A stretch of DNA of 64,000 nucleotides from Terebella lapidaria (lineage: Eukaryota; Annelida; Polychaeta; Terebellida; Terebellidae): NCBI GenBank assembly GCA_949152475.1, contig OX424561.1, forward strand, positions 19,958,481 through 20,022,480, in the 5' to 3' direction. The translations under genes were made by a program, and so were the position numbers. The notes below the pieces were generated by a model. It made no database searches and had not been told where the DNA came from. It worked only from the letters and a program-made list of their open reading frames with translations. Below, one piece after another: positions 135 to 28,001 of this stretch (position 1 is its first letter; every line of letters begins with the position of its first letter).

Positions 135-138
135 TATA
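135..138. repeat. Target site duplication, left copy (TATA)
   Basis: TATA directly abuts the left LTR and is repeated at 13225-13228 next to the right LTR. A 4-bp duplication fits Ty3/Gypsy integrases. The site is low-complexity, so chance identity cannot be fully excluded. Confidence 0.7.
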
Positions 139-884
139 TGTGAAGAATACGGTTCACTGGCCCGTATCAGGCCGAATGTCTGTGATGTTGTGCTACAGAC
201 CAACAAGCCGGCAGTTCAATTCAAACTGTTTATTGTGGTGATAACGTCTGATGATCAATCACACCACAATCGGGGCCGCTCACACCTACGTCGGTGATTT
301 CCCAGTCGAATATCCTAATATAGTCCTTTATATATATATGACAGTTTATACATCCACGTTATATCAGCTTTTATATTCCTTTTATGCGATTACGGCCGTT
401 CTTCTGGTACAATATACAATGCGACCGTTCCCTTGGACATCTACTTCTCAACTGCGCAGATGACTGGGGCCGAGGGACCATGTGGCTGTGTAATTTCCCG
501 CCAAGTGTAAGCGGTGTTGTGATAGGTTGAATGTGTGGTGCAATGCGCTGATGTCACCGGGAAAGTGGGTTTCCCCGGCTCGTGTCAATACTTGTAATGC
601 CTGTATCGGTGCACGTGATGTGTGGAGTATGTGTGTCAAGTTCTATGTTTAGAAGTCAGTGCATGTGAAGGTCAAGGTCGAGTAAACGGGGCCGAGTGTA
701 CTGAACTAGCGGGGCCGCAGGTGCGTGGTTTGACCTGTGTATGTAACCATGACTACATGGAGTTTAGGCTTGTGATCGTATAGTATGTACCTGTCCTGTA
801 TGTAAGTCATGTAGAATGAATGTTTGTTGTGGAAATGTGTAGTGCGCGGGAGGGACGGGAGTTACAGTCGCTAAAATTACTACA
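139..884 (-). repeat. 3' LTR of the Ty3/Gypsy element
   Basis: This 746-bp repeat is identical to 12479-13224 except for two single-base differences that I saw (near 238 and 427). It starts TGTGAAG and ends CTACA on the plus strand. On the transcribed minus strand a TATA-like stretch lies at 340-325 and an AATAAA signal at 234-229, about 95 nt apart. This places R between them, with U3 to the right and U5 to the left. It also holds four GGGCCG hexamers (near 273, 467, 690 and 712). Confidence 0.95.
229..340 (-). promoter_or_regulatory. LTR TATA-like box and polyadenylation signal
   Basis: On the minus strand a CATATATATATAAAGG stretch (340-325) is followed about 95 nt downstream by AATAAA (234-229). 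This is the usual spacing for a U3 promoter and an R-region polyadenylation signal. The same pair exists in the other LTR at 12680-12665 and 12574-12569. Confidence 0.6.
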
Positions 885-886
885 TA

Positions 887-897
887 ACACCCCTTCA
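887..897 (-). promoter_or_regulatory. 3' polypurine tract
   Basis: Two bases upstream of the 3' LTR the minus strand reads TGAAGGGGTGT. A purine-rich run in this place is the expected RNase H-resistant primer for plus-strand DNA. The same 11-mer occurs three more times in the element (9612-9730). Confidence 0.75.
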
Positions 898-1385
898 TTA
901 ATTCTACGCCCTCGGAATTACCCTCCCCGGACCCTACCGTCGCCAAAAACTAAACAATAAAAAGCTAAGAAGTCCTAAAGGTCAAACCCAAAAACACACA
1001 CACACACACGCCGCGCGAAATGCGAAAACACTTCATACAATAAAAATTCCTAACTGTCAAAATAAACGTCAGCAGTCAGTCCGTCAGCAGTCTCTACGAT
1101 GATACATATACAAATACATGTACAACAATGACTGATGAAGAATGGAATGGAATGTATAAAGACAAAACTCCTCGACATTCTCTAGTAGAATGGAAAAAAT
1201 CACTCTTTAAAGTTCATTTCTGGAATAAAAATGGTGATTAAACTTAACTAAATTACATGTATAAAAACGAAATGCCATGACTAGGATAGAATATATATAC
1301 AACTATTTACACAAATAAACCTGTGACCAGGATGGTCGGTCACCACTGGGCCGCATCAAAGGGGCCGAACAGTTCAGGGTCGACA
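898..1385 (-). other. Non-coding 3' segment of the retrotransposon
   Basis: Between accessory ORF B and the polypurine tract lies AT-rich sequence with a short CA run (about 991-1010). Unlike the rest of the element it has almost no GGGYCG hexamers until 1348. No ORF is supported. Confidence 0.5.
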
Positions 1386-2924
1386 TTATTTCTCCTCCCG
1401 TTCACGCCTGCTGGCGGCAGGAGGCGGGGCCGCTGGCGATGCTTGTCGCATGAGTTGCAACTGCTCATCCGGGGGTAACCTCGGCAGAATGGACACAATT
1501 GTGGCCAAAAGCTCCCCCGGAATGGTCGGTGTAGACGGGGTCGTCGGAGCTGTTGCCTCCGGAGTAGTTGGGGTCGATGCTGCTTGGAGCCGAGCGTTTT
1601 CCTGTTGGAGGTTAGCAACTCGATCCTCCAACTGAGTCACGCGAACTCGGAGCCGAAGATTTTCCTCGGACAGGGCGTCCGGGAACGTGGGCTGGTGGCG
1701 CTCATGTAGGGCGCCCATCCCAAAGCCGACAGACAGGCCGTTGTACTCTGCCTGTCTGATGTGATGATCCAGGGCCGACAAGTACTCCCGACGTATCAGC
1801 CGTAAGTATTGGTGCGCCAAGTCGTCAGCGCGAGCGAGAGCCAGGGTCGGTAAATGCTCTTCCGGTTCTGACGGGAGAAGCAAGGGGTCGGCATTATGGG
1901 CGGCCTGTTCAAGGCGGGCCGACCAAAAGTCTTCATGGAACCCGAGGTAGTTCGGGAGCCGCTGGGCGTCCTCATCCCGTAGGAAGTCCGTGAGGTCGGG
2001 GTTCTGGCCGGGTAGCGCCTGCAGGCCGGGAAGCGAACGAGTCGCCAGACGTCTGCCGTGTTGCCGCAGAAATTGAAAGTCGGCCGCAAACTCGCCGGAC
2101 CCATGAAACGGAAGACGCTCGTCGAGGTCCCTGTGGAGTGACTCAAGCTGCTCCGGGTCGTCCACTTGGAGTCGGGGCCGATCTCTATCAGTGCCGCGTG
2201 TCAGGACGGAGCACAGAGGTTCCACTTCCTCCGTGAGGTACGGCGGGAGCGGGACGGGTTCCACCATCCGCCGTGAAGGCTCTGGTGAGGATTCCGGGGT
2301 CGAAAACTGTGTCGGGGACGCACGTACAGGAGATCCGGGTGCAATCTCCCTGAGTGGAGGCGGCCGATCCTCAGCTGGACTCTTTGGTTCATGGGTCTCC
2401 TTGCCGGTTGATGACGATACCGGTGTGGTATTCAGGGGTCGACTTGGGAGTGGCGGATACTCCTCAGGTGGAGGGACCAATCCCTCACGGACTCGGTAGT
2501 CCGTGACGTTAGAGGCCGTGGGTCGCTCCACAACCATCCGCCTGGGTATAATATCCGACGGCCGAGCTCTAGACGGGGTCGAAGATGTCACTGTGGTGAC
2601 CGGTCGGGTTGTCGCTGGCGACGCCACTGTCGCGAACGAAGCCGTCGTGACGACTGCTGAGGCCGAAACACCGGTGGTCGTTGTCGGGACCTCCTCCGCC
2701 GTGCTCACCGATGTTGTCTGGTAATTGATGGGCCGGACGAAGAAAATCGTGCTGGGTCGTCGAATTCGAACCCGCGTGTTCATGGTCTCAATGTCGCTGA
2801 CCATGCGGGTAAGCCGAATCTCGTCTGCCGGGGTCGAAGCACGATTGTACTCTAGTCGACGGAGTACCTGTTGCACTTCCGGGGCCGAGTTGGGCGGATA
2901 TTGCTCAAAGAGCTCTGGCGCCAT
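1386..2924 (-). CDS. Accessory ORF B: coiled-coil protein of unknown function
   Basis: This 512-residue ORF is the last before the 3' LTR and follows ORF A by 66 nt in the same frame. Residues about 80-230 are Thr/Pro/Ser-rich. About 235-415 are predicted by eye to be helical and rich in Leu, Arg, Asp and His. A clear coiled coil covers 421-450 (Leu and Val in heptad positions, e.g. LEDRVANLQQENARLQ), and the tail is Pro/Ala-rich and charged. No signal peptide or membrane helix is visible. I recognise no homologue. A coiled coil could serve self-assembly or bind ORF A or Gag. An ORF of this length kept open in a young element suggests that it is used. Confidence 0.75.
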   Translation of the reverse strand: MAPELFEQYPPNSAPEVQQVLRRLEYNRASTPADEIRLTRMVSDIETMNTRVRIRRPSTIFFVRPINYQTTSVSTAEEVPTTTTGVSASAVVTTASFATVASPATTRPVTTVTSSTPSRARPSDIIPRRMVVERPTASNVTDYRVREGLVPPPEEYPPLPSRPLNTTPVSSSTGKETHEPKSPAEDRPPPLREIAPGSPVRASPTQFSTPESSPEPSRRMVEPVPLPPYLTEEVEPLCSVLTRGTDRDRPRLQVDDPEQLESLHRDLDERLPFHGSGEFAADFQFLRQHGRRLATRSLPGLQALPGQNPDLTDFLRDEDAQRLPNYLGFHEDFWSARLEQAAHNADPLLLPSEPEEHLPTLALARADDLAHQYLRLIRREYLSALDHHIRQAEYNGLSVGFGMGALHERHQPTFPDALSEENLRLRVRVTQLEDRVANLQQENARLQAASTPTTPEATAPTTPSTPTIPGELLATIVSILPRLPPDEQLQLMRQASPAAPPPAASRREREEK

Positions 2925-2990
2925 GTGCCAGATGCCGAATGTCAGGACGGTGTTGACATCCCTCCTGAAGATCGGGATGTTGGCCGGAAC

Positions 2991-4184
2991 TCATGGGGGT
3001 CGATAATTCGGGTTCGGCTGCATGTCGACTCTGCAGCGTAGCGCGAACCTGACGAGCATGGGGCCGGATGCCGATAGTCGTCCCTCCTGGTAGAACGGAA
3101 ACGACGTCACGTGTTGCGGGGTCGCTTGGGACAGGTGCCGGAACATCTCCTCCTGGGCCAATGTCCGGAAGCCGTCGCGGGCCGGGCACACGAAGTAGCG
3201 TAAGAACGGAAAGTGGTACGCTAGTACGTGCGCGTCGAGACTCTGGGCCGTCCGGAAAGGTCCGCGTCGTGGCACGGAGGACCACTGTCGCTCTCCTGCT
3301 CCTTCCTCTTCGCCGATGCAGAAAGGGCACTCGTAGCGACCGTCTCCACGCTGTAGCGGAGCCAACGTGAGGAGGTTTCCCTCCGACAGGGTCGACTGTT
3401 CATCGAAGTTGTGGATATGGCCGTATCCAGCGCTCCGATTCCGTTTGCTGAGTGGAACCTTGTTCCAGTCTATGGGCCGAGTTCCGTAAGGCGTCACGGG
3501 AGGTGGCACCAATTCCATCAATTCCGCCACTTGCCGACGGAAAGTCGAGGTCGGGGCCGGAACAGCAGATCCGCCACTAGAGCGCGACGAACTGCTAGAG
3601 GTCGATCGGGCTCCCGCTCCATGTTTCTTCTTAAAAGAAGTATAAGTTCTCTTGTTTGGAGAACGGGAGGCCGCAGGTCGTGCTACCGCTGAACTGGAAG
3701 CGGGTGAAGTCGGGGCCGGAGCGATCGGGGCGATCACCTGATTTGCTGGGTCGGGTTGGCGGCTCGCTGTGGCGACTCGTTGAGCCTCTTGGGCCGCTTG
3801 TCGTGCCTCAATCGCACGCTGGACGATACTTCCGCCCTCCTCGAGTCGGCGGAAGCGTTCGGGGTCGATATTAAAAATGTCGTCCGGAGTCGGGCTCGGT
3901 GTATGGCGCTCTCCTCGTTGCGCCAGCTTGTTCCGGGCCGTTTTGGGTCGTGCTCCCTTCTCCGAACCACTTGCCGTGTCACTGAGCGTGACTGGATCGC
4001 GCTGCTCAGGCTGCGAGCCGGGGTCGGACGAAGCTTCGTTGTCGGGGACGACTATAGGATGATCCGATTCATCCCCGGTGTCGATTACTTGGACGGTGAT
4101 GTTATCGCCGTCCAACTTGACTGTGCGGGGCCGATTATCACCTGGGTCGTTATTTTCCCGGTCGTCTCCGGGTTTGTCAGCCAT
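2991..4184 (-). CDS. Accessory ORF A: zinc-finger-like protein, not env
   Basis: This 397-residue ORF lies downstream of pol, where env would be. The first 200 residues are acidic, then Ala/Pro/Ser-rich and disordered. The last 115 or so hold Cys/His pairs that look like two degenerate C2H2-type fingers: C286 and C289 with H319 and H324, then C333 with H350 and H358. There is no signal peptide, membrane segment or furin-like site, so it is unlike an envelope. I do not recognise the family. A nucleic-acid-binding role is plausible from the fingers. The ATG sits in the loop of a 6-bp hairpin. GGGYCG hexamers run through the gene in all frames. It could be a captured host exon or an element-specific regulator. 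Confidence 0.75.
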   Translation of the reverse strand: MADKPGDDRENNDPGDNRPRTVKLDGDNITVQVIDTGDESDHPIVVPDNEASSDPGSQPEQRDPVTLSDTASGSEKGARPKTARNKLAQRGERHTPSPTPDDIFNIDPERFRRLEEGGSIVQRAIEARQAAQEAQRVATASRQPDPANQVIAPIAPAPTSPASSSAVARPAASRSPNKRTYTSFKKKHGAGARSTSSSSSRSSGGSAVPAPTSTFRRQVAELMELVPPPVTPYGTRPIDWNKVPLSKRNRSAGYGHIHNFDEQSTLSEGNLLTLAPLQRGDGRYECPFCIGEEEGAGERQWSSVPRRGPFRTAQSLDAHVLAYHFPFLRYFVCPARDGFRTLAQEEMFRHLSQATPQHVTSFPFYQEGRLSASGPMLVRFALRCRVDMQPNPNYRPP

Positions 4185-4274
4185 GCTGACGGGCCGAAAT
4201 CAAGCCGAAGTACTTCCCAAGTACTGACTAGGCTGGTTGTAACAAAGTCCGGATTTCTTCAAAACCAGCCTAGT
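4176..4274 (-). promoter_or_regulatory. Three consecutive hairpins around the accessory ORF start
   Basis: In the sense RNA a perfect 12-bp stem is formed by 4263-4274 and 4227-4238 (AACCAGCCTAGT against ACTAGGCTGGTT, 24-nt loop). Then comes a perfect 7-bp stem with a 3-nt loop (4225-4209). Last is a 6-bp stem, GTCAGC-ATG-GCTGAC (4190-4176), whose loop is the ATG of the next ORF. The arrangement suggests translational or splicing control; function is inferred. Confidence 0.5.
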
Positions 4275-5630
4275 TCAAATGCCGATACTCAAAGCCGAAT
4301 TAACTCCAAAGTCTTGTGACCAGGATTTATACAATGTCACAGTTTATAGGCCGATAATTATTGTTCGATTAGCACAGTCTCTGTATCACTAGTCTGTATT
4401 CTGGTATCCGAAACTTCAAGTCCGTCTTTCTCCTTTAAAGTCTCAGGCACAAGTGACCTGATTGCCGCTAATCTTCAATGCCGTACACAAAGATGCTGAC
4501 AGCATCTCGATTCTTAGAACTGGGTCGGGGGACGCTCTCTATCTGTATAGAAAACGTCTTTACGCTATGTATCATTGTTCCAAGCGTACACACAGCAAGG
4601 CGGGGCCGTCGTCAAGGAAACGCAGAGCGATCCTTCTCTGACCTCTTGGGTCAGTCCATTACGACAGTAGGGGTGTCCTCACACTGTCCAGATTTCCGTA
4701 TGTCCAACTGCCGTCCCCTGGATAGCACGTTCCGAATCATTGTCTATTTATACTGATCGACTGTTCGAATTACTGGGCTCTTTTTGCCCGACGACTCACT
4801 ATTGTCTTTATCAGGGGAGACTTCATGTAGGTGCTGTAAACAGCTAAAATGTTTATTAGCGCTCGTGCGTGCCTTGTGAACTTATCAGTTTATCGTTCCT
4901 TCTCCCACAAATTAGCGCACAATAAACTACGGGGTCGAGTTGCTGTTTCACAGACGACACACAGTTATTAAAGGCTGAGATATGAATATCAATCACTCAC
5001 AGGGGCGGACATCGTTCCATTCATTTCCAGCCAGTTCACAGGACGACGGGGCCGCAAATATTGTAGGGGTCGAAATTGCAATGAACTGGGTCGGTCACAC
5101 CGCGGCGCTTTGAATATTTTGGGTGATGGATTTGATGACAGGCCGCATCTTGGCATGATAGCTATGTAGTGACTGGTTCACGTACCACTGGGCCGTTCCT
5201 CCGAATATTACATGGAGTGAGTAGAGGCTCTGTCGACGCATACTCCAGAACGAATCACACTATCACCTCTTCGACAACTAAGTGGCCTTACTCACGGTGT
5301 GACTGGTTATTATCCTCTTCGGCTGGCACATGGATTGAAGCTTTACATGATAATTTTAGTCATTGCGTAACATACGCCTTGATCAATGGTACATGTTATA
5401 CGGGGTCGAAACATATATCATAATGCAACCAATTTTTCACCAGCATCATAATTATAATATCATATCTAGTGTGTATATAACGAGTTTGCCTCACTGACAT
5501 CTTGTACATATTAAATGCATATATTGTTATTGTAATATAATATATTATTATTGGGAAAGACATGATATCATAGTCCATTAGACATGCATAATTCATCATC
5601 AATGATATCAATCAGATAACAAGGCCGGGG
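4185..5630 (-). other. Long non-coding interval between pol and the accessory ORFs
   Basis: This stretch of about 1.4 kb inside the transposon has no credible ORF on the sense strand. It keeps the one-sided GGGYCG hexamers (for example near 4522, 4602, 4931, 5048, 5067, 5089, 5190 and 5402). Near its downstream end it holds three consecutive hairpins just before the zinc-finger ORF. It could carry a promoter, splice sites or packaging signals; none was proven. Confidence 0.5.
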
Positions 5631-5951
5631 TTATCTGTAGCGGGCCGGTTTGCGTGCATTGCGTCTGGGTCGATTTGGTCGTGCAGGCGGGGGCGTAGCC
5701 TCGCTTGTCTCAGGGTCGGAAGATACCACAGGCTTTTGCCTGCGTGTCTTGCGTGCCGGTTTTGGAGTGTCGGAACTTGATCTGTGTGATCTTTTCCGTT
5801 GCCGATGTCGACTTGAGCCGGATGAAGTCGGAGATCGCGATTGACGATCCTGGGTCGTTTGCGAATCAGACTCAGCTGTTTGGTCTGAATCGGTATGTCG
5901 ATCTTGGACTGTTACCTCCCAAGGGTAATAGAACTCCTTGAGAAGTCCCAT
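5631..5951 (-). CDS. Basic C-terminal tail of integrase, separated by one in-frame TGA
   Basis: This stretch is in the same frame as the integrase and is cut off only by a single TGA at its end; the first Met is 16 codons after the stop. It is hydrophilic and very rich in Ser, Arg, Lys and Pro, and ends RPRRNARKPARYR, much like the basic tails that close many Ty3/Gypsy Pol proteins. I infer that it is the native Pol C-terminus, either lost by one point mutation or made by read-through. The stop is followed by C (TGA-C), a context known to be leaky in other systems. Confidence 0.6.
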   Translation of the reverse strand: MGLLKEFYYPWEVTVQDRHTDSDQTAESDSQTTQDRQSRSPTSSGSSRHRQRKRSHRSSSDTPKPARKTRRQKPVVSSDPETSEATPPPARPNRPRRNARKPARYR

Positions 5952-5999
5952 GGGGTCGGGTGACTGTTCTGGGTCGGAGTGACTTGACGACGTTGTGGG

Positions 6000-6992
6000 T
6001 CATACAGGGTCGGAGTAGATGTGGGCCGCTTGGTTGTCACCTTCGTATGGCTTGAGCACATCCAGATGAACAACACGAGTGTTCCGAGGGTTGGAAACCA
6101 GGGCGATTCGGTAATCCACCTCGGTTACACGGTCGATGATCCTCCAGGGACCAGTCCAGGGCCGAGCGAACTTATTATTCTGCGTGAGTGGCAGATAATA
6201 ATACCGGACCAGTTCGCCTGGTTGAAACTGGGGTCGTGGTTTCGCGTGGGCGTCATAACCCATCTTTTGCCGAATTGCCGCTTTTGCGAGATGGTCTTGG
6301 GCGAAACCGTGGGCCGTCCTGATGGCTTGCCGCAAATACTCCACATACTCCGGACCACACGGAGGTAGAGGCTCGGGGTCGTAGGTCGGAAACATGAGGT
6401 CGACTGGCAAGTTACACTCATGTCCATACACCATCAGATGCGGGGTGCATCCCGTGGACGAGTGTACTGAGGTTCGATAGGCCATTAACACATATGGCAG
6501 GTGCAAGTCCCAATCGTTTGCACGATCGCTGACGAACGCACTCAGCATGTTGAGCAATGTCCTGTTGAATCGCTCAACCTGGCCGTCGCTCTGGGGTCGG
6601 TATGGGGTCGTGCGAATCTTCTTAGCGCCCAGTAGACGCACAACATGCCGGAACAGGGACGACTCAAACTCAGTACCTTGATCGCTATGGACCGCTTTGG
6701 GGACACAATGGTAGACTATCCACCGATTCACCAGGGTGTCGGCAACATTTTTGGCCGTATGTCGCCGTAGCGGAAAAGCGTCAGTGTACTTCGTAAAGTA
6801 GTCCGACACGACTAGTACATACCGATAGCCTCTTCCCGTGACCTTGTGGGTGTCGAGGATGTCCATCGCTATTCTGTCGAACGGCGCTCCTGTCGGTAGC
6901 TGTGTCAGGGGCGATCTTTTTGGGGCCGGTTTACCCTTGCGGGTCACACATTGCGGGCAGCGGGCACACCAGCGGGCGACGTCCAGCGCCAA
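6000..6992 (-). CDS. Integrase (DDE type)
   Basis: From the given Met the protein starts in the CPQC half of the HHCC zinc-binding domain. The HH half lies upstream in the same open frame to about 7090, overlapping the RT-RNase H ORF. The catalytic triad is Asp44 (AMDIL), Asp104 (HSDQGTEF) and Glu140 (GQVERFN), with exactly 35 residues between the second Asp and the Glu. A C-terminal domain follows (PGELVRYYY, about 245-253). The integrase inserts the cDNA into host DNA. A TGA stops this frame, but the same frame is open for another 121 codons beyond it (see 5631-5951). Confidence 0.95.
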   Translation of the reverse strand: MALDVARWCARCPQCVTRKGKPAPKRSPLTQLPTGAPFDRIAMDILDTHKVTGRGYRYVLVVSDYFTKYTDAFPLRRHTAKNVADTLVNRWIVYHCVPKAVHSDQGTEFESSLFRHVVRLLGAKKIRTTPYRPQSDGQVERFNRTLLNMLSAFVSDRANDWDLHLPYVLMAYRTSVHSSTGCTPHLMVYGHECNLPVDLMFPTYDPEPLPPCGPEYVEYLRQAIRTAHGFAQDHLAKAAIRQKMGYDAHAKPRPQFQPGELVRYYYLPLTQNNKFARPWTGPWRIIDRVTEVDYRIALVSNPRNTRVVHLDVLKPYEGDNQAAHIYSDPV

Positions 6993-8899
6993 GCCGGGCC
7001 AGTAGAATCGGCGCCTGACTCTCTCGATGGTACGCTGTATGCCGAGATGTCCGACAATCTTGAGGTCGTGTAGTTGGTGCAGAACTTGTGTCGAACAACT
7101 TGGCGTGCCGAAACTAGCTGGGGCAAGACCGGTGATGTTATCGAATCACTGTCCAGGAGGTCTGCCCTTGTCTGGGTCGGAACAACAGTTATCCGACGAA
7201 CTGGAAGTTCTCCGGAACTTGTTTCTGGGTCGGTCGGAGGTGTGACGAGTCGTCCGGGACAGTCTTGGTGTTTGCAACTGTGGCACCGTGACAAGCCGTC
7301 GGCGTTACCGTGTAGTTTTCCGGGTCGATGCTCTATCCGAAAGTCATACTGCTGTAGCTTGGCGAGCCACCTAGCGAGCATGCCGTCGGCGTCGCTGTAG
7401 TTTTTCAGCCACCTTAGCGAGCTATGGTCGGTCCGGAGGAGGAATTTCCTACCCCAGAGGTAGTGCCGATAGTGTTGCACCATCTCAACTACTGCCAGTA
7501 GTTCCCGATAGGTGGTGCAATAGTTCCGCTGGGTCCGGGAAAGGGTCTTGCTGGCGAACCCGATGGGGATCTCCTTCCCGTTAACCCTTTGCGAGAGGGC
7601 TCCTCCCACAGCAAAGCCGCTTGCATCCGTGTCGAGGATGAAGTAGTCCTCCGGATTCTGGGTCGGATGAGCGAGCTTGGGAGCCTTAATGTGGGCGTCG
7701 CGGAGTCGCTGGAAAGCTCGTCGCTGGGCCGGTCCCCAAGTGAAGTGGCATTCACCTCGGGTAAGCGCTACGAGAGGTTCAGCGATCTCAGCGTAGTCCT
7801 TGATGAATCGCCTGTGGTAGTTGGCGAAACCAAGGAAAGCCCTGACGTCGGTGATCTCGCACGGGGTCGGCCATTCTCTGATGGCTTTAACTTTGTTGGG
7901 GTCGACTCGGATTCCTTGGCCGCTCACTATGAACCCTAAGTACAAGATTTCCCGTTGGAACAACTCACACTTCTTGGGCTGTAGTTTCAGGCCTGCCGAT
8001 CTGATCCGATCCAGGACCGCTTCCAGGTTTGCGAGTGCCTGATCGAATGTTCTGCCGTAAGCTATCACGTCGTCGAGATAGCACATACACCGGGTCCACA
8101 AGTAACCATGGAGTATGGTTTCCATAAGCCGTTCGAAGGTTGCCGGGGCGTTGCTAAGGCCGAATGGCATGACCTTAAACTGGTAAAGTCCCTTCCTTGT
8201 GGCGAAGGCAGTCTTCGGTCTGTCGCTGGGGTCGACTTCGACCTGCCAGTAGCCGGAGGCCAGGTCTAGGGCCGAGAAGTAGTTGGCGCCTGCCAGGGCG
8301 TCATGAGTGTCCTGAATGTTGGGCAAGGGATATGAGTCCTTGCGGGTGACGTCATTCAGGAGCCGATAGTCGACACAGAAGCGTACTTGTCCGTTCTTCT
8401 TCCGCACGAGCACTACCTGTGCGCTCCAGGGCGAATCTGACGGCTCAATACACTCCAAGCGGAGCATCTTGTCGATCTCCTCGTCGATGATGCTTTGCTG
8501 CGCCTGAGGGACGCGTCGCTGTCGTTGTCGAATCGGGGCCGAGTTGCCGGTGTCGATTCTATGCTGGACGACTTGGGTCCGTCCCAGTTGGCCGTCTGGG
8601 TGCATGAATGTGTCCTGGTATTGGTGAACCAGGTTGGCGCAACGCCGATGTTGTTCCGGCGCTAGTCCGGCGCGATCCACCATTTCTTGTAGATGTGGCG
8701 GTAGGTCGCGGTAATGACTGGCGTCTACCGTGGCCGGGTCGGGCTCCTCTCCGGGTCGTGGCAGAGCTCCGACGACACTTTCGACAGGGCTTGCTATGGC
8801 GACAGGGTCGGAACGGGTGAGCGTAATGCCGGTATCTGCTGGATTGACTACCGACACCTTTACGCACTGCCGATTCAGGGTCGTAAGTGTTCTCCCCAT
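6944..8899 (-). CDS. pol: Reverse transcriptase - RNase H
   Basis: RT motifs are complete: FCVDYR (about 174-179), LDLASGYWQ with the first catalytic Asp at 212, FGLSNAPATF (246-255) and the YLDD active site (274-277). RNase H follows with DTDAS (423-427), the Glu of YRELLAV (466), TDHSSL with Asp 491 and GNADGLSR near 531-538. These residues copy the RNA into DNA and remove the template. The reading frame is open upstream of the ATG and overlaps the end of the protease ORF. The last 55 or so residues are out of frame: the integrase zinc-binding region lies there in the -1 frame (shift near 7085-7090). Confidence 0.95.
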   Translation of the reverse strand: MGRTLTTLNRQCVKVSVVNPADTGITLTRSDPVAIASPVESVVGALPRPGEEPDPATVDASHYRDLPPHLQEMVDRAGLAPEQHRRCANLVHQYQDTFMHPDGQLGRTQVVQHRIDTGNSAPIRQRQRRVPQAQQSIIDEEIDKMLRLECIEPSDSPWSAQVVLVRKKNGQVRFCVDYRLLNDVTRKDSYPLPNIQDTHDALAGANYFSALDLASGYWQVEVDPSDRPKTAFATRKGLYQFKVMPFGLSNAPATFERLMETILHGYLWTRCMCYLDDVIAYGRTFDQALANLEAVLDRIRSAGLKLQPKKCELFQREILYLGFIVSGQGIRVDPNKVKAIREWPTPCEITDVRAFLGFANYHRRFIKDYAEIAEPLVALTRGECHFTWGPAQRRAFQRLRDAHIKAPKLAHPTQNPEDYFILDTDASGFAVGGALSQRVNGKEIPIGFASKTLSRTQRNYCTTYRELLAVVEMVQHYRHYLWGRKFLLRTDHSSLRWLKNYSDADGMLARWLAKLQQYDFRIEHRPGKLHGNADGLSRCHSCKHQDCPGRLVTPPTDPETSSGELPVRRITVVPTQTRADLLDSDSITSPVLPQLVSARQVVRHKFCTNYTTSRLSDISAYSVPSRESGADSTGPAWRWTSPAGVPAARNV

Positions 8900-8940
8900 G
8901 ATGAGGTCGGTTTCCTCGGGAAAGGTCGTAAGTGGCTGGA

Positions 8941-9723
8941 CTATCCTCGGGTGTTGTCGAACTCGAACCCGGAAGTCGGGACCAGCTCCACTATTGCCTT
9001 GCTGCGTGCGGGGACGGTGACAGCTCGTCGCACGGCCATTCTGACAACATTGGCCTCAATGTCTTTATGTGCGAACAGGACTTCTTTGTGTACCTGTATC
9101 GTCCCTTCACCGTAATTCACTACAGCGTGAGCTTGCCGAAAAAAGTTCATGCCGAGAATCATGTCGTCATGTATGTCAGCCACACAAAAGGTTACGACCA
9201 TATGGTTGGTTCCGACCTGTATTGAGAGGTCGATCAGTCCATCGATCGGGCTTGACTGTCCGGTGACGTCACGAATAATAGCCGAAGTAGACCGCAAATG
9301 TCGCTGGTCAGCGGGGACGTGACGTAGCTGATCGCGTCGGAGCAGGGAGATCTGCGCTCCGGAGTCGAGTACAGCCTTTATCGTCTTGTTTCCGACGTGT
9401 ACCGGCAACTTCCAGCATTTGTGATTGGTGGCGCTGGAGTTGTTGATGACAGCCGGAATTTCGGGGTCGTCTAGCGGTGGCCGGAAGAGTGTGTGAAGAG
9501 GCGGCAGTTTGGATTCCGGTCCACTCGGAAAAGCGTAGAATCCTCCGTCGTCGGAGATCCACTCAATCTCGGACATGCTGTCCGTTCCGGTGCCGTTGGC
9601 GGTCGGGGGTGACACCCCTTCAGGACGACGGTTTCCACGTGGTGGCCGTTGTGGCCGCGGTGCGGACACCCCTTCATGAAAAGAGGCCGATTTCGGGGTC
9701 GGAGCTTGACATTTTGTACACAC
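8941..9723 (-). CDS. Retropepsin-like aspartic protease ORF
   Basis: The active-site motif V-L-D-S-G-A is at about residues 118-123, with the catalytic Asp at 120. The second hallmark, ILGMNFF, is at about 189-195. This is the retroviral/retrotransposon aspartic protease that matures Gag and Pol. The N-terminal 100 residues are low-complexity and hold three EGV repeats that coincide with the polypurine-tract-like DNA repeats. The frame is open upstream of the given start to beyond the Gag stop at 9870, so it is probably reached by -1 frameshift. At the C-terminus the RT frame overlaps in the next -1 frame. Confidence 0.9.
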   Translation of the reverse strand: MCTKCQAPTPKSASFHEGVSAPRPQRPPRGNRRPEGVSPPTANGTGTDSMSEIEWISDDGGFYAFPSGPESKLPPLHTLFRPPLDDPEIPAVINNSSATNHKCWKLPVHVGNKTIKAVLDSGAQISLLRRDQLRHVPADQRHLRSTSAIIRDVTGQSSPIDGLIDLSIQVGTNHMVVTFCVADIHDDMILGMNFFRQAHAVVNYGEGTIQVHKEVLFAHKDIEANVVRMAVRRAVTVPARSKAIVELVPTSGFEFDNTRG

Positions 9724-9730
9724 CCCTTCA
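9612..9730 (-). promoter_or_regulatory. Three internal copies of the polypurine-tract 11-mer at exact 54-nt spacing
   Basis: TGAAGGGGTGT (minus strand) occurs at 9720-9730, 9666-9676 and 9612-9622. It is identical to the 3' polypurine tract at 887-897, and the DNA between copies is otherwise dissimilar. Lentiviruses and Ty1 use an internal second polypurine tract; three copies at the Gag-protease junction would be unusual. In the protease frame the repeats read as an EGV tripeptide every 18 residues, so selection on protein is an alternative. Confidence 0.55.
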
Positions 9731-9869
9731 AGGAGCTGAGGTGTGGGCTGGGCCGGCTGCGGGGTCGTTATTGGTGTCGTTACCGGTACAGTAGTCGTGA
9801 CAACCGCAGATGTGGAGCGGGGAACGTTGTCCTGTTGTCTGGAAGGTCCTTGCTCCTCAGCACCTTCCC

Positions 9870-11288
9870 CTACTGGTTTGACGACGGGGTCGGAGGTGTT
9901 GGTGGGGCCGGTTTAGTTTGGTTACCGGTTTGGTTAGGTACTGACAACACTTGAGCTGTCCTTCTGTCAGTACCGGGACCATTAGGCCGAAATGCTAGCG
10001 GTTTCATGCCGTTGCGTACTAGCACATCCTTAAGCCGAAAGCACCGCATCCAGCGATGGCCGGGCTTCTTGCAAAAGAAGCAAACCATGGGTCGTCCGGG
10101 TTGCGGGGGTCGATCACCTTTCATCGGGGCCGTTGTTCGTAGGACAGAAAAGATAGCCGTTTCCTCGCATAGTCCATTCTCGTCACTAAGGACGCACTGG
10201 AAAGCTTCAGCCACCCACTCGCGTGAGCTGGTCGGCACTGAGTGTTCGTCGCAACCTTGTAGGCCGGTAGAGTCACTGTCCGCGGGGTCGTAGTAGGCCG
10301 CAATTTGCTCTGGGGTTAGTGTTTCCCCCTGAGTGACTTGTCCCATGGCACAGGACAGTTCTTCATTGACAGGGTCGTCTTCCGCGTATCCGCTTGCGGA
10401 AATGTCGGCACGTCGTGTGCCTCGATGTCGATCTCTGGCTGTCCTCTGCTGACGACTCTCTACCTTGAGAACGGCCGTCAGTGCCTCACTGTAACTGTTA
10501 AAAGTGAGGGCACACAGTTTATCGGCAATGGGGTCGGGTTGGCCGTTCACGAATTGTGCAATTACAGTTCGTTGCCGCGACGTTGGCGTAACGTCATCGA
10601 ACACTTGCTCCGCCAGGGCTTGGAGTCGCTCCATGTAGTGTTCCACGTCCTCTTTTCGTTCCCGCTTGAGGAACGGGAAATCGTCCCGTTTGGACTGTCG
10701 ACGGGGCTCGGGTTCCCAGCCCTCTAGGAGTTGGCGACGGAACTCTCCCCAGGGAGTCGCGACCGGGATATTTAGGGCTAGCGCTTCAGCGCGGCCGCGT
10801 AGCGTGCTCCGGAAGGTCGTCGTCTTGTTGAGGTCGGAGTAAGTGAAAGCCGCAGTAAACTGTTCGAAACTCCGAATGTATTGAGTGAGATTGCCCTCCT
10901 TGAAGGTCGCACGCCATTGAGCCATTTTAGCCGTAGCCAACGTTTGGGGCTCAGACGTGAGTCTCTGTGGCGTGGGCGTGTCAACACTCACCGCAACTGG
11001 TGTAGTCGCTGCAGTGGCCGTCGGAGTCGGAACAGCCGAAGTCGCCGGAGCCGTCGTATCTGGGCCGATCGGGGTCGCGTTAGCGGGGGCGGTCGGTGCT
11101 GTCGTCGCGGAGACGGCGAGCGATGCGGCGGGTGGTGCCGTCGTGTGACTGGGGTCGTGTGGTGCTTGTGCAGCGGGGGCCGGTTGACTGTATGGAGGCG
11201 TCACCCATGGTATCCCGACTGAGGGTGGGAATACAGCCGGTGGTGGATATCGGTATACCGATCCATCTGGGCATACACCATGGTACAC
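9870..11288 (-). CDS. gag: Gag core with capsid-like domain and CCHC zinc knuckle
   Basis: After a Pro/Thr/Ala-rich start the protein has a helical region typical of retrotransposon Gag capsid. It covers about residues 130-250 and contains a W-x-x-F-R-x-x-L-like stretch. A zinc knuckle follows with exact CX2CX4HX4C spacing (C403, C406, H411, C416). Such a protein forms the particle and binds the genomic RNA. The first in-frame codon after the upstream stop is GTG and the frame stays open further upstream, so the true start is probably by -1 frameshift from the preceding ORF. The protease frame overlaps the end of this ORF, again at -1. Length (472 residues) is usual for a Ty3/Gypsy Gag core. 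Confidence 0.85.
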   Translation of the reverse strand: MYHGVCPDGSVYRYPPPAVFPPSVGIPWVTPPYSQPAPAAQAPHDPSHTTAPPAASLAVSATTAPTAPANATPIGPDTTAPATSAVPTPTATAATTPVAVSVDTPTPQRLTSEPQTLATAKMAQWRATFKEGNLTQYIRSFEQFTAAFTYSDLNKTTTFRSTLRGRAEALALNIPVATPWGEFRRQLLEGWEPEPRRQSKRDDFPFLKRERKEDVEHYMERLQALAEQVFDDVTPTSRQRTVIAQFVNGQPDPIADKLCALTFNSYSEALTAVLKVESRQQRTARDRHRGTRRADISASGYAEDDPVNEELSCAMGQVTQGETLTPEQIAAYYDPADSDSTGLQGCDEHSVPTSSREWVAEAFQCVLSDENGLCEETAIFSVLRTTAPMKGDRPPQPGRPMVCFFCKKPGHRWMRCFRLKDVLVRNGMKPLAFRPNGPGTDRRTAQVLSVPNQTGNQTKPAPPTPPTPSSNQ

Positions 11289-12418
11289 TAATCCGGGTTG
11301 TGCACCATGATAGCCGGTGAATGATAGCCGACATGATAGCCGACATGCGGTGAATAGTATCCGACAGCTACTCCATTTGGAACACCGCTTGTTGCGCCAG
11401 GGTATCCGACTGGCGGTACACCATATCCGTTGGTGTTTCCGACTGATTGTGAGATCGGAGGTCCGATCATTGGCACAACACTTTCTGCCGGAGCAGACAC
11501 AACTTGATCTTGCGACGGATCGAAGCGCGGTTGTTCTCCGGTAGTCGGCGATGGTCGGTGCGTGGTCGGCGCGGGAGCGCGTGTGTCGAAAGTCGGCGTG
11601 TCAGGGTCGCAGGGTCGGCGACTTGATGTCGAGGGTGCTTGTCGGGGTCGCGCTTGTCGCATGGTGGCGCGAGATTCCGTCATCGTGTCGCTGGGTCGTT
11701 GTTGTCGTAGAGGCGTCGCGATCCGGGTAGCGGTCGTCGCCAGGATGTCTTCGGATGTCGCTCCCGTCTGGCTGGGTCGTGTGTACTCTACCACCGTAGG
11801 CTCGGTCGGTATGCGTGAGTACATTTCTGGCGCGGGGTCGTGTTGTCTCGGCGTCATGGACGGCGCCAGGTGTCGATTGGCCGAATAAGCGTTCGGCGGG
11901 GTCGATTCCGGAACATTGTCAGACTGACAAACCCACTGTCGTATCCGAGAGTTACTTGGTGGGTGCGTAACCATTGACGTGTCTATGGTTACCGGCCGAA
12001 CGTTCACTGCTAATTGTTCTGGGTCGATATCACGATCTACGCTCGCTCTTTGACGTGAGCGCGTATAGTTTCTGTCGGCAAAGTCACTTTTCTGGGTCGC
12101 TCTAGCCGGCGTGGCCGAGTACGCTCTAGCGTGTGCACGCAGAATGTCACTTACTGTATGTGACGGCGCGAGCGGGTCTTCGTCTAGGAACTCCTGCACC
12201 AGGTCGGTAGGCGGCGAAAACGATCTCAGGGACGAATGGTCGCCGATGGAGTCGAAAAGGCCGGACGGTTGTTGCTCCTGCGACAGTGGAACTGTATCGC
12301 TCATGGCAACTGAGCGAGGGCCGGAAGGTCGGAAGGCCGGATTCGGATTGATCGTCACTTCGTCATCCGTGGGGTCGAGTGGCTCACCGCGGGAGGCTCC
12401 CGGGACCAATGCCATCAA
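11288..12418 (-). CDS. Gag-like N-terminal ORF (Pro/Ser/Thr-rich)
   Basis: This 376-residue ORF is the first in the transposon. Its ATG lies about 60 nt inside the 5' LTR and a second Met codon follows at once. The protein is rich in Pro, Ser, Thr and Arg, has no obvious fold, and ends in a GY-rich tail (about residues 340-365) just before the TAG stop. The downstream Gag core is open in the -1 frame and overlaps this end by at least 90 nt without a good ATG of its own. I infer that this is the N-terminal part of one Gag, joined to the core by -1 frameshifting, or less likely that an indel split the gene. No domain was recognised, so the Gag assignment rests on position. Confidence 0.65.
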   Translation of the reverse strand: MMALVPGASRGEPLDPTDDEVTINPNPAFRPSGPRSVAMSDTVPLSQEQQPSGLFDSIGDHSSLRSFSPPTDLVQEFLDEDPLAPSHTVSDILRAHARAYSATPARATQKSDFADRNYTRSRQRASVDRDIDPEQLAVNVRPVTIDTSMVTHPPSNSRIRQWVCQSDNVPESTPPNAYSANRHLAPSMTPRQHDPAPEMYSRIPTEPTVVEYTRPSQTGATSEDILATTATRIATPLRQQRPSDTMTESRATMRQARPRQAPSTSSRRPCDPDTPTFDTRAPAPTTHRPSPTTGEQPRFDPSQDQVVSAPAESVVPMIGPPISQSVGNTNGYGVPPVGYPGATSGVPNGVAVGYYSPHVGYHVGYHSPAIMVHNPD

Positions 12419-12459
12419 TGCCGGTCAGGTCTGGGTCGAAGATCCGAGACTAGCTCAGA

Positions 12460-12477
12460 TCCTGGTCTACGGCGCCA
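12460..12477 (-). promoter_or_regulatory. Primer binding site for minus-strand DNA synthesis
   Basis: One base inside the 5' LTR the minus strand reads TGGCGCCGTAGACCAGGA. It begins with the TGG complementary to a tRNA CCA end. The implied tRNA has the 3' end CTACGGC-G-CCA; the discriminator G would suit a serine tRNA, but I could not identify the tRNA. Confidence 0.7.
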
Positions 12478-12478
12478 A

Positions 12479-13224
12479 TGTGAAGAATACGGTTCACTGG
12501 CCCGTATCAGGCCGAATGTCTGTGATGTTGTGCTACAGACCAACAAGCCGGCAGTTCAATTCAAACTGTTTATTGTGCTGATAACGTCTGATGATCAATC
12601 ACACCACAATCGGGGCCGCTCACACCTACGTCGGTGATTTCCCAGTCGAATATCCTAATATAGTCCTTTATATATATATGACAGTTTATACATCCACGTT
12701 ATATCAGCTTTTATATTCCTTTTATGCGATTACGGCCGTTCTTCTGGTACAATATACAATGCGACCGTTCACTTGGACATCTACTTCTCAACTGCGCAGA
12801 TGACTGGGGCCGAGGGACCATGTGGCTGTGTAATTTCCCGCCAAGTGTAAGCGGTGTTGTGATAGGTTGAATGTGTGGTGCAATGCGCTGATGTCACCGG
12901 GAAAGTGGGTTTCCCCGGCTCGTGTCAATACTTGTAATGCCTGTATCGGTGCACGTGATGTGTGGAGTATGTGTGTCAAGTTCTATGTTTAGAAGTCAGT
13001 GCATGTGAAGGTCAAGGTCGAGTAAACGGGGCCGAGTGTACTGAACTAGCGGGGCCGCAGGTGCGTGGTTTGACCTGTGTATGTAACCATGACTACATGG
13101 AGTTTAGGCTTGTGATCGTATAGTATGTACCTGTCCTGTATGTAAGTCATGTAGAATGAATGTTTGTTGTGGAAATGTGTAGTGCGCGGGAGGGACGGGA
13201 GTTACAGTCGCTAAAATTACTACA
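12479..13224 (-). repeat. 5' LTR of the Ty3/Gypsy element
   Basis: This is the partner of the repeat at 139-884. It would drive transcription of the whole element leftwards. The TATA-like stretch is at about 12680-12665 and the AATAAA signal at 12574-12569, both on the minus strand. The flanking TATA at 13225-13228 matches the TATA at 135-138. Confidence 0.95.
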
Positions 13225-13239
13225 TATATAATAATATTT

Positions 13240-13860: not shown

Positions 13861-14562
13861 TGAATTGCTTGAATATTTTGCAATAAATTATGTTATAATG
13901 TTGCATTTTACTTGATAGTATTTACCAATATTGTAAAAATAAATTCTTTTTGTCACACATACATGTATCGTCTAAGAACATGCCCGTTTATATTCGAATA
14001 TATCACACGCATTTTCCACTTTAAAGAACCATATTCCTGCTCTCAAAGCTGGGCTGGATAGCTCAGTTTCTTGGAATGTCTCTCATGAACACAGCTCAGT
14101 TTCTTGGAATGTCTCTCATGCCACTTGAACACAAATATAAAACATCCTTATACAATTTATTTTCATACAAAAAAAGTACACCGAGGTTATCCAGTCCTGA
14201 GGTTATCCAGCCGTCGTCAGCTAACAAAAAAGCCTCTTACCAAATTCCTACTAGATACGTCGAACAGAGCCCCCCCCCCCACCCCCCCCCCCCCGCCCCC
14301 GACATCGCCATAGCAAACGGACAAAAGCCCATCATTATTCTTAACACATTCCATTATCTGGTGAGGTCTAGCCCCCCTCTGTGCGTCATTAACTGCTTCA
14401 TACACAATTACTAAATACACACCCCGTAATTAGCTCTGTTCTTCTCTTTAGATGCTGGTTTCGTAGTTCACTTGTGATTCCTGGAATTACAGAAATCGTT
14501 TTCCTGTATAAATTCCCACGGTGTCGCGTGAGAGCTGTAATGGGGTGATGAACCCCCTATGT
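13861..14562. other. Intergenic, no gene seen; poly-C tract
   Basis: Nothing coding is supported. A poly-C tract interrupted by A and G lies at about 14271-14299. A short phrase ending TCAGTTTCTTGGAATGTCTC is directly repeated at 14062-14082 and 14096-14116. Confidence 0.4.
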
Positions 14563-15603
14563 CACAGGGAGGAACCGTTTGCCTGATTCTATGTGCATTA
14601 TTCTGATTCTATGGGCAAAAAGTCTGATTCTATGGGCAAATTGTCTGATTCTATGGGCATTAAGCAAATAAGCGGTGGGGCACCAGTAAAACATGCTGGA
14701 TAAACGACAAATTTCTCAACACAATCTGATGGCATATGTTCTGTTTACTCCCTAAATTATTGCAGAATATGGATTATGTTCAGTTTCTTATGCAGTGTTC
14801 ACCGTTGTTCATACATTTGTCGCACAAAAGTGGAACGGCCAGGTGGTGGAGCAGTTATCCATAATAAATCACCAACTGCAAAGCGTTCACACTAACCTAG
14901 CTAGGTATCTGAACAAAAATTAGTCCAGTTGACATTCTGATTGTTCCTAGATGTGAAATCAGCTACCAAATCAAACAATTGATCATAGATTAAAAATAAC
15001 AGAAACAAACCTGATTCTATGGGTAGGTTTATTTGATAACCATGGAACTATAGGCTTCGATCTGTCGTCCATGTTATTGACCTTCTCCTAGAAACAGAAC
15101 ATAAAATCAAGCTTCAATACTATATTTATTCAGGATTAGCATCGAGAAGCTCTTAGTTCCATGGCTATAACAACACCCTACCCATAGAATCAGGGTTGTT
15201 CCCATAGAATCAGGTTTGTTTCTGTTATTTTTATTCTATGTCCAATTTTGTTGGATTACGTAGCTGACTTCATATCCAGGAGCAATCAAAATGTTAACTT
15301 GAATAATTGTCATGCAATTGTGGTCAAGATATCCTGGTAAGTAACTGGAAGCGCTTTGTCTTTGGTGATTTATGATGGCTAACTGATCCACTGCCTAGCC
15401 GTTCCACTTTTGTGCGACAGATATATGAAGAGCGGTGAACACCATACAAGAAATTAGCCGTCGATCCAGCATGTTTTACTGGTGCCCCACAGCTTACTTG
15501 CTTATTTGCCCATAGAATCAGACAATTTGCTCATAGAATCAGACTTTTTGCCCATAGAATCAGGCAAATGCACATAGAATCAGGCAAACGGTTCCTCCCT
15601 GTG
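14563..15603. mobile_element. Palindromic (foldback) element with repeated CTGATTCTATGGGCA
   Basis: The ends are perfect inverted repeats starting CACAGGGAGGAACCGTTTGC, and the whole 1.04 kb is an imperfect palindrome centred near 15100. TGATTCTATG is repeated about five times at the left end and about twice more inside. Its complement is repeated similarly on the right. There is no ORF. No convincing target duplication was seen, so the superfamily is open; clustered subterminal motifs suggest transposase-binding sites. Confidence 0.8.
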
Positions 15604-15835
15604 TTTGTGGCCCAGTGGATAGGGACTGGTGGCTCTTGAAGCGACGAAGCTCAGAGGCGGTAAGTGACGCGGGTTCAAAGTAGGTGGAGTTTTCATCCTG
15701 GCAACATAAAGGTTTCTCCATTCGAATGTGCTATCCAAATTCAAAATTGTCACTCGACGGTGGATGGGGAAGACAGGCAGACTTGCCTATCATCATGGAC
15801 CGTCGTTAAATAAATCTGATGATAATTATTATTCC
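15604..15835 (+). mobile_element. Possible tRNA-derived SINE
   Basis: An A-box-like TGGCCCAGTGG (15608-15618) is followed 54 nt later by a B-box-like GGTTCAAAG (15672-15680), as in RNA polymerase III promoters of tRNA-derived SINEs. The segment ends in an ATT-rich tail near 15830. The palindromic element abuts its left end and may have cut into it. B-box agreement is partial. Confidence 0.45.
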
Positions 15836-15878
15836 TTCTGGAGCGCGCATCTCCTTGAGAATGGACGATCAGATGATG

Positions 15879-16988: not shown

Positions 16989-17499
16989 TAGATTGATACA
17001 AGGCTAACCCACGTATAATCTCGTCTCTACGGTGGCCCTATGCTGCCAAGTAGTTTATGAACCAATCCGCCAAGATTGAATTCCAGAAAGAGTTACCGCC
17101 GAGTTTGTAAACCAATGCGCCCAGTTTTTAGACTAAAGGCGGGAACACACCTGTCCGATTTTTACCATCCGCATCCGCATCCGTATCCGCATCCGTCATC
17201 AGTTAAATTCGCTCTGGCTTATTTGAGAGGCAGTGAGCACACCTCTCCGCATCCGTATCCGCATCTGCACTGTCGTCCGGCACAATCGGTAGCGGACCGA
17301 CTTTCACGGATGCGGACGCCCTTCAGGATAAAAAATCACGTGCTTAAGAACGCACGTGAGACGCATAACAAGTGCACGGTGCATGTACTACGACTAGGCC
17401 TAGGCTAGGCCACTTATAGGCCTATTTAAATTCAAACCGAACCGTCGGTGCCATTGTCAAACATAATAGTCTAGTAATCAAGTGACAGAAATGAGAATA

Positions 17500-17652
17500 T
17501 GAAGGCCCCAAAAAACAGGAGATTTTAATTATGAGCTCTTAATTGAACTTGTGAGAAGTGAAGAATACCTATATAATCGGAAGCATACGGAATACAAAGA
17601 CGCCCAGCTGGTGCGAAACACCTGGGATTCAATTAAAAGTGGGTTTCAGCGG
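17500..17652 (+). pseudogene. MADF-like exon of the Harbinger accessory protein
   Basis: One frame reads ELLIELVRSEEYLYNRKHTE followed by YKD and a conserved Trp (NTW), the signature of MADF/Myb-like DNA-binding domains that partner Harbinger transposases. It ends at CGGTAAGT, a good splice donor. No ATG lies in this frame; an upstream ATG (17500) is in another frame, so a small indel has probably broken it. Confidence 0.65.
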
Positions 17653-27973: not shown

Positions 27974-28001
27974 CCAGTTCAGCTTCAGACCGGCACACGT
28001 C

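What the first reader, a model, noticed from the sequence alone, without database searches (positions are those of the whole stretch)
139..13224. One-sided hexamer code: about 110 copies of GGG(T/C)CG across the whole retrotransposon
Counting by eye I find about 110 occurrences of GGGTCG or GGGCCG on the plus strand of this 13.1 kb element; about 6-8 would be expected. I noticed essentially none of the reverse complements (CGACCC/CGGCCC) on the same strand. The copies occur in LTRs, Gag, RT, the accessory ORFs and the non-coding 4.2-5.6 kb gap, in all codon frames, roughly every 120 bp, so codon usage does not explain them. In the element's RNA they read CGRCCC. They stop at the element borders. 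This looks like a dispersed recognition motif, for example for Gag or accessory ORF A in packaging, for RNA protection, or for escape from a host system. No such property is known to me for Ty3/Gypsy elements.
Basis: seen in the sequence. Interest (0 to 1): 0.88.

Follow-up and report, generated by a model that had tools for sequence, protein, structure and literature searches.

The report
One-strand motif code in gypsy retrotransposons
A young 13-kb retrotransposon carries a six-letter motif more than a hundred times on its RNA-sense strand and never on the other, related families in the same genome carry different motifs of the same kind, and the motif copies resist silent mutations, which suggests that such elements tag their own RNA.

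Summary
In detail: 111 GGG(T/C)CG (CGRCCC on the element's sense strand) and 0 reverse complements in 139-13224. Coding parts hold 86 against 22.4+-4.0 in a protein- and codon-preserving shuffle. Where the amino acids allow the motif, 82 of 140 places carry it, 21.7 expected. In 41 copies of one 4.25-kb piece the reverse motif is absent. In the 3' ORF, synonymous frequent polymorphisms number 5 per 76 sites inside motifs and 222 per 652 outside, while singletons do not differ. Three distant Gypsy copies of the same genome lack it. Closer families have their own one-sided CG-anchored motif: CGRC[AC], CGRA[CT], CGNGA. CGRA[CT] was confirmed in two later-fetched pieces.

Best reading: a selected, strand-specific self-RNA tag whose letters switch between families, read by an element-encoded RNA-binding protein (Gag, or the 3' ORF protein in a Rev/CERV-like role). 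Reader and job are inferred. Codon usage, composition and tandem duplication are rejected and a mutational sink is disfavoured. A host reader or a DNA-level VANC-like role is not excluded.

The parts
139..13224 (-). whole Ty3/Gypsy element (sense = minus strand) carrying 111 CGRCCC in sense and 0 in antisense
   Evidence: borders
139..884 (-). 3' LTR, 746 bp; motif sites at 273, 467, 689, 712
   Evidence: the two 746-bp LTRs align without a gap and with 2 mismatches (score 742)
12479..13224 (-). 5' LTR, 746 bp; motif sites at 12613, 12807, 13029, 13052
135..138 (.). target-site duplication TATA, left copy
   Evidence: read
13225..13228 (.). target-site duplication TATA, right copy
   Evidence: read
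12461..12478 (-). probable primer-binding site (TGGCGCCGTAGA... next to the 5' LTR); the tRNA was not identified
   Evidence: read; name by position only
9870..12418 (-). Gag region in two open frames (11288-12418 and 9870-11288), frame broken near 11.29 kb; one CCHC knuckle; 23 motif copies
   Evidence: one 859-aa frame in 2 of 2 other copies examined; Retrotrans_gag 19.2 bits, below its cut-off of 24.1, in the window's fragment and no Pfam match for the 859-aa frame; knuckle read by eye
8941..9723 (-). aspartic protease part; 2 motif copies, no excess
   Evidence: Pfam PF13975, PF13650, RVP above cut-off
6944..8899 (-). reverse transcriptase / RNase H; 14 motif copies
   Evidence: Pfam RVT_1, RT_RNaseH above cut-off
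6000..6992 (-). integrase; 9 motif copies in the part not overlapping RT
   Evidence: Pfam rve, Integrase_p58_C above cut-off
5631..5951 (-). open frame of 106 aa, probably the C-terminal end of Pol; 4 motif copies
   Evidence: similar Pol ends in L071 and L072; assignment is an inference
4185..5630 (-). stretch without a long sense frame between Pol and the 3' ORF; 9 motif copies against 0.42 expected
1386..4184 (-).
   Evidence: no Pfam match above cut-off, no PDB sequence match, no database relative; single-sequence model mean pLDDT 38.5

Best explanation
The motif is a strand-specific identity tag on the element's genomic RNA. SHOWN: in this host genome the element's family and closely related families each carry a short one-sided motif built on CG (ours CGRCCC; others CGRC[AC], CGRA[CT] with best word CGGACT, CGNGA), in coding sequence in all frames and, where looked at (ours, L071, L072), also between the frames; its copies in our family resist synonymous change. 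Candidates are Gag (one CCHC knuckle) or the fast-diverging 3' ORF protein. Many weak sites, one per about 60-120 nt, would give avidity, so that the protein coats only RNA of its own family, either for nuclear export of the unspliced 13-kb RNA (as Rev or Cer1 CERV do) or for selective packaging (as dispersed packaging signals do). Reverse copies would be missing because reading happens on the sense RNA, where they would also pair with the sites.
For: 111 against 0 by strand, 86 against 22.4+-4.0 under codon shuffle, noncoding parts too. 82 of 140 amino-acid-permitted places used, 21.7 expected. 0 reverse copies in 41 of 41 pieces. 3' ORF: synonymous frequent variants 5 per 76.3 sites inside and 222 per 652.3 outside, singletons 9 and 76; fourfold sites 5/69 against 109/496, p=0.0035. 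Motif windows free of frequent variants 44/52 against 216/379 of other CG-starting hexamers, 0 of 5000 draws reach it. Own one-sided motif in 8 of 8 pieces of closer families under codon shuffle (z 4.6 to 7.1). CGRA[CT] then confirmed in 2 of 2 pieces fetched afterwards: 28 and 33 against 13.9 and 13.2, reversed 7 and 4. Sites turn over while the code stays: of 17 L003 sites 15, 10, 0, 1 remain in L066, L065, L064, L067. The 3' ORF is recognisable in L071 and L072 at 28-45% over parts.
Against: No binding, export or packaging was measured. Predicted accessibility of the sites is only slightly raised (0.474 against 0.432, p=0.016, 61 of 111 sites). The selection signal in the noncoding piece alone is not significant (3/66 against 95/1388, p=0.62), and it was tested in depth in one 4.25-kb piece of one family. 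The protease part has no excess. The patterns for L063-L070 were chosen after seeing those pieces; only CGRA[CT] has a held-out test, and L063 rests on one damaged copy on a long branch. L071 also has 6 CGRCCC against 1.5 expected, 2 reversed. In yeast Ty3, nt 429-4979 are dispensable when proteins come in trans (PMC4974528, passage), which argues against a general need for dispersed signals in this superfamily. Tree support for the CGRC group is weak (57/87).
Confidence: 0.5

Rival explanations
1. The same kind of RNA tag, but read by a host RNA-binding protein (for example an SR or hnRNP protein) for export, stability or suppression of splicing; families recruit different host proteins.
For: One-sidedness and dispersal fit RNA-level reading equally well. 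No element protein was shown to bind. That L063's GACGAGAA-like matrix recalls published SR-protein motifs is from memory; the search for one such consensus found no paper holding that string in the rows shown.
Against: A shared host reader would favour a shared motif, yet families in one genome carry different ones. The distant Gypsy copies L058-L060 lack any comparable one-sided motif.
Confidence: 0.2
2. DNA-level, VANC-like system: an element-encoded DNA-binding protein recognises a high density of the motif on integrated copies and blocks silencing; motif and protein co-evolve by family.
For: Family-specific, dense, same-orientation motifs that switch between relatives are described for VANC (PMC5735166, passages); the CG in the motif could matter for methylation; the 3' ORF is of unknown function.
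Against: VANC motifs share one orientation as parts of tandem repeats; here there are no motif arrays, copies arose by point changes inside genes in all frames, and still none of the exact motif is reversed. A duplex reader should accept both orientations (inference). The motif avoids no coding region except the protease part.
Confidence: 0.18
3. Mutational sink: a family-specific bias of reverse transcription or editing pushes sequences towards the motif and keeps them there, without selection.
For: Would give a one-sided motif and few frequent variants at the motif.
Against: Columns one step away are not enriched in frequent variants (4 of 76; elsewhere 359 of 3959). The process would have to create C from several bases at three successive positions in our family and A or G in others, for which I know no enzyme (recalled).
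Confidence: 0.07
4. Codon usage, amino-acid content or base composition.
For: Sense C exceeds G and the proteins are rich in Arg and Pro; the codon shuffle alone gives 22 coding copies.
Against: 86 against 22.4+-4.0 with proteins and codon sets kept, and noncoding parts have it too. Dipeptide excess is slight (RP 33 against 26.9, DP 25 against 18.1). GC-rich Gypsy copies of the same genome show none.
Confidence: 0.02

Closest known systems
VANC proteins and target motifs of Arabidopsis VANDAL transposons (PMC5735166; passages seen)
   Same: Short motif at high density and in one orientation, specific to a transposon family, differing between related families, with a co-evolving element-encoded protein.
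   Different: VANDALs are DNA transposons; the motifs lie mainly in noncoding regions and spread by tandem repeats; reading is on duplex DNA. Here an LTR element carries the motif through coding sequence in all frames, without arrays.
Dispersed packaging signals of RNA viruses (PMC6281560; search listing with start of abstract)
   Same: Many copies of a short recognition element spread over the genomic RNA, compatible with coding.
   Different: Known examples are in RNA viruses and hepatitis B virus; no coat-protein contact or stem-loop display is shown here (weak accessibility signal only); here the motif differs between families in one host.
CERV of Cer1, a C. elegans LTR retrotransposon (PMC10309623; abstract and passages seen)
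   Same: LTR retroelement with an extra protein outside Gag-Pol; potential leucine zipper and a Cys-rich possible zinc finger; CERV is needed for export of unspliced genomic RNA and colocalises with it.
   Different: No dispersed RNA motif appeared in the passages seen; our protein was not compared with CERV by sequence and its role is unknown.
Yeast Ty3 genomic RNA packaging (PMC4974528; passages seen)
   Same: Gag with one CCHC knuckle; packaging reported to depend on UTR or POL sequences.
   Different: nt 429-4979 are dispensable when proteins are supplied in trans; no dispersed one-sided hexamer in the passages seen.

Membership tests
Ty3/Gypsy (Metaviridae) LTR retrotransposon | two LTRs and a short target-site duplication | tested here: met
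   746-bp LTRs with 2 mismatches, TATA on both sides
Ty3/Gypsy (Metaviridae) LTR retrotransposon | order protease, reverse transcriptase, RNase H, integrase | tested here: met
   Pfam matches above cut-off in that order on the minus strand
VANC/VANDAL anti-silencing system | carried by a MULE-type DNA transposon | tested here: not met
   LTR retroelement
VANC/VANDAL anti-silencing system | motif mainly in noncoding tandem repeats | tested here: not met
   86 of 111 copies are in coding stretches; one tandem array of 27 bp, not the motif
VANC/VANDAL anti-silencing system | motif specific to a family and changed in relatives | tested here: met
VANC/VANDAL anti-silencing system | encoded protein binds duplex motif DNA and removes methylation | not testable with these tools
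   no binding or methylation data
Dispersed RNA packaging signals | many copies of a motif along the genomic RNA | tested here: met
Dispersed RNA packaging signals | motif displayed unpaired in loops | tested here: inconclusive
   unpaired probability 0.474 against 0.432 with shuffled flanks, p=0.016; loops not mapped
Dispersed RNA packaging signals | contact with the coat or Gag protein | not testable with these tools
   needs a binding assay
Rev/CERV-like export factor (for the 3' ORF protein) | required for export of unspliced genomic RNA | not testable with these tools
   needs an experiment
Rev/CERV-like export factor (for the 3' ORF protein) | sequence relation to Rev or CERV | not tested
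   not compared directly; general searches found no relative

The most novel reading that the evidence does not exclude
A clade of Ty3/Gypsy elements writes a family-specific 'self' code into the whole sense strand of its genome: the CG(R) anchor stays while the following letters switch (C, A, G) as families split, together with a co-evolving element-encoded reader, so that families sharing one germ line keep their RNAs apart. It would be an orthogonal RNA-identity system spread by silent substitutions rather than held in a single packaging site.
Probability: 0.42. Interest if true: 0.92.

Novelty: new variant of a known kind. Interest (0 to 1): 0.82.

Why it matters
How LTR retrotransposons tell their own RNA from host mRNA and from related families is open; a review says that the sequences important for packaging in the yeast elements have not been precisely defined (PMC4974528, passage). 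A dispersed, strand-specific motif under synonymous constraint, with related families carrying different motifs, makes the question directly testable, because the motif, its alternatives and two candidate readers are named by sequence. It is also a case in which a nucleotide code sets more than half of the permitted codon combinations along a 13-kb element (82 of 140).

Tried and rejected
Codon usage and composition: rejected. Tandem spread: rejected. Regular spacing: none. RNA hairpin or loop display: weak signal only. Mutational sink: disfavoured. Relatives of the 3' ORF: none found; one search used only the 397-aa N-terminal part, whose length filter would miss full-length relatives, and one search repeated it with the 932-aa protein, residues 225-420, again without result. 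Structure of the 3' ORF: single-sequence model too poor (mean pLDDT 38.5), so no fold search was made. DNA relatives outside this genome: viral contigs gave 0 and then 1 distant element, L001, with CGRCCC 2 and reversed 1; its best matrix is weakly one-sided (49 against 15 above score 4, 3.4 bits). Prokaryote species genomes gave 0. The phage collection gave one short match in a Listeria phage record, ignored. Literature: no paper describing a dispersed one-sided motif in an LTR element stood in the rows shown (open-licence papers only). Counts on 8 plus 8 copies (shared variants 3/270 against 77/4683, and 3/282 against 119/3902) were superseded by 41 copies.
Full report
OBSERVATION. On the + strand of 139-13224 there are 68 GGGTCG and 43 GGGCCG, 111 in all, and no CGACCC or CGGCCC; the following 50,776 bases have 4 and 8. 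The element lies on the minus strand, so its sense motif is CGRCCC. Four sites lie in each LTR, so 107 are independent. A dinucleotide-preserving shuffle gives 14.6+-3.5 and, for the reverse, 6.4+-2.4 (minimum 1 of 300). A shuffle keeping each protein and its codon set gives 22.4+-4.0 for eight coding stretches against 86 seen; seven of the eight show the excess and the protease part does not (2 against 1.7). All frames are used (21/39/26), and noncoding parts carry it: 9 against 0.42 in 4185-5630, 6 against 0.35 in 438-1385, which is partly LTR. Spacing is random-like with a mean of 116 bp; a weight matrix gives C-G-R-C, then C-rich, then (A/C)-G, with about 226 weighted sites; 209 windows score above 4 in sense and 15 in antisense. 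Taking the amino-acid sequence as given, 140 places could encode the motif; 82 do, against 21.7 expected from codon usage (20 of 33 Arg-Pro; 37 of 73 and 25 of 34 in the other phases). In RT the residues at motif sites agree with 14 relatives less often than other residues (0.36 against 0.56), so the motif sits mostly at variable residues.

ELEMENT. LTRs of 746 bp (139-884, 12479-13224) differ by 2 mismatches, with TATA on both outer sides. Protease, RT-RNase H and integrase match Pfam above cut-off; Gag is only a weak match, with one CCHC knuckle by eye. The window's copy is broken. The 94% RT identity of the 67 other copies is probably due to a frame break near the end of the window's RT frame (inference), as DNA identity is 97.1-98.7% to the 7 other copies compared. 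The genome (762 Mb, 438 contigs, unnamed) lists 104 places for ORF A, a lower bound.

SELECTION. Forty further copies of the piece 1386-5640 (93.4-98.3% identical to the window) have 42-46 motifs each, and 0 reversed in 41 of 41; among 14 other-copy pieces, one (L004) has one reversed copy. Of 52 motif places 42 are present in at least 95% of copies. Columns ever covered by the motif show variants in three or more copies at 11 of 294, other columns at 359 of 3959 (p=0.0008); singletons at 21 and 245. By part: 3' ORF 8/228 against 264/2571 (p=0.0004); noncoding 3/66 against 95/1388 (p=0.62, not significant). In the 3' ORF, synonymous frequent variants are 5 per 76.3 sites inside and 222 per 652.3 outside, singletons 9 per 76.3 and 76 per 652.3; nonsynonymous frequent 3 and 42. 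Fourfold sites: 5/69 against 109/496, p=0.0035; composition-matched hexamers 42/450 against 11/294, p=0.003. Against other hexamers starting with CG, 44 of 52 motif windows and 216 of 379 controls are free of frequent variants, and 0 of 5000 draws reach this. Equal singletons suggest equal mutation after insertion; the deficit of frequent variants suggests removal while the element multiplies (inference; copies are related, so p-values are approximate). Columns one step from the motif are not enriched in frequent variants (4 of 76), against a mutational sink.

FAMILIES. Three copies of distant, GC-rich Gypsy elements of the same genome (L058-L060; L058 and L059 are 50-54% identical to the window and L003) have CGRCCC 3, 3, 5 and reversed 4, 4, 2; in four of their genes it is below the codon shuffle (0, 1, 2, 2 against 4.5, 5.2, 5.4, 5.1). 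Closer families, found through the database protein P0001, were sampled as eight 2.7-kb Pol pieces. L066 (95% to L003 of our family) has CGRCCC 17 against 4.6 under codon shuffle; L065 and L068 (88 and 87%) CGRC[AC] 50 and 48 against 23.7 and 22.0; L064, L067, L069, L070 (71-72%) CGRA[CT] 40, 41, 43, 40 against 22.5, 23.2, 21.5, 20.5, with CGRCCC 0, 2, 0, 2; L063 (58%) CGNGA 18 against 6.7 in its longest open stretch. All three frames contribute. The base three after the C of CG is C in 47-52% of sense CGs in the first two groups, A in 41-44% in the third and G in 50% in L063, against 10-27% on the other strand; L058-L060 show no such difference. These patterns were chosen on these pieces. Two pieces fetched afterwards are a held-out test of CGRA[CT]: L071 (same copy as L064) and L072 (another copy, put with L067 by its frame length and match start), each covering the Pol end, a stretch between frames and the start of the 3' ORF. 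They have CGRA[CT] 28 and 33 (expected 13.9 and 13.2; 0 of 1000 shuffles; reversed 7 and 4) and CGGACT 10 and 11 (expected 0.55 and 0.61; reversed 0 and 0); the stretches between frames alone have CGGACT 5 and 5 against 0.16 and 0.13. L071 also has CGRCCC 6 against 1.5, 2 reversed. Of 17 aligned motif places of L003, 15 persist in L066, 10 in L065, 0 in L064, 1 in L067, so places turn over while a code stays. On a Pol tree of 13 rows the four classes need 3 changes, the least possible; support is 57/87 for CGRC and 87/99 for CGRA, and L063 is a long branch. The 3' ORF is recognisable in L072 (45% over 88 aa, 32% over 85 aa) and L071 (28% over 102 aa).

MECHANISM. One-sidedness despite spread by point changes points to reading on RNA or single-stranded cDNA; a duplex reader should tolerate both orientations (inference). 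Density and degeneracy suggest many weak contacts. A family-specific reader explains a switch with a kept CG anchor. Gag and the 3' ORF protein are the element-encoded candidates; the second has a coiled coil and a Cys/His-rich stretch by eye and recalls in outline the CERV protein of Cer1, which is needed for export of unspliced RNA (PMC10309623, abstract and passages). Function remains inferred; a host reader and a DNA-level role stay open.

COMPARISON. VANC motifs share family specificity, density, orientation and switching, but lie mainly in noncoding regions, in tandem repeats, of DNA transposons and are read on duplex DNA (PMC5735166, passages). Dispersed packaging signals share the spread over genomic RNA (PMC6281560, search listing). 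For yeast Ty3 the internal region is dispensable in trans assays (PMC4974528, passages), a point against a superfamily-wide need. No paper in the rows shown describes this property for an LTR element.

Noticed in passing
L058, L059, L060 (distant Gypsy copies of the same genome): Their genes have a two-sided excess of TCCG[GC] (36, 40, 25, 41 against 17.1, 19.8, 11.2, 21.1 under codon shuffle; reverse [GC]CGGA 41, 46, 20, 43 against 22.9, 28.3, 12.8, 26.1) around the palindrome TCCGGA, perhaps another family-specific code of a different, duplex-type nature.
   Followed up: partly
L071, 2501 bp: A CGRA-type family piece also has 6 CGRCCC against 1.5 expected, 2 reversed; it could be a remnant or a transition between codes.
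   Followed up: no
window 27951-28928 and 36716-37687, + strand: Two similar rhodopsin-type 7-transmembrane receptor frames (Pfam 7tm_1, 37.9 and 34.7 bits), apparently a recent duplication.
   Followed up: partly
window 43315-44283, - strand: A 322-aa open frame that reads like another membrane receptor by eye but has no Pfam match at E 0.01.
   Followed up: no
window 14001-22000: Very frequent AAACCT/AACCTT/ACCTTT words (48, 47, 47 against about 3 expected), with the reverse words also in excess, suggesting a diverged repeat family.
   Followed up: no
window 14563-15603: Nested inverted repeats, arms 97 nt (96% complementary) and 138 nt (78%), possibly a small DNA transposon or hairpin element.
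   Followed up: no
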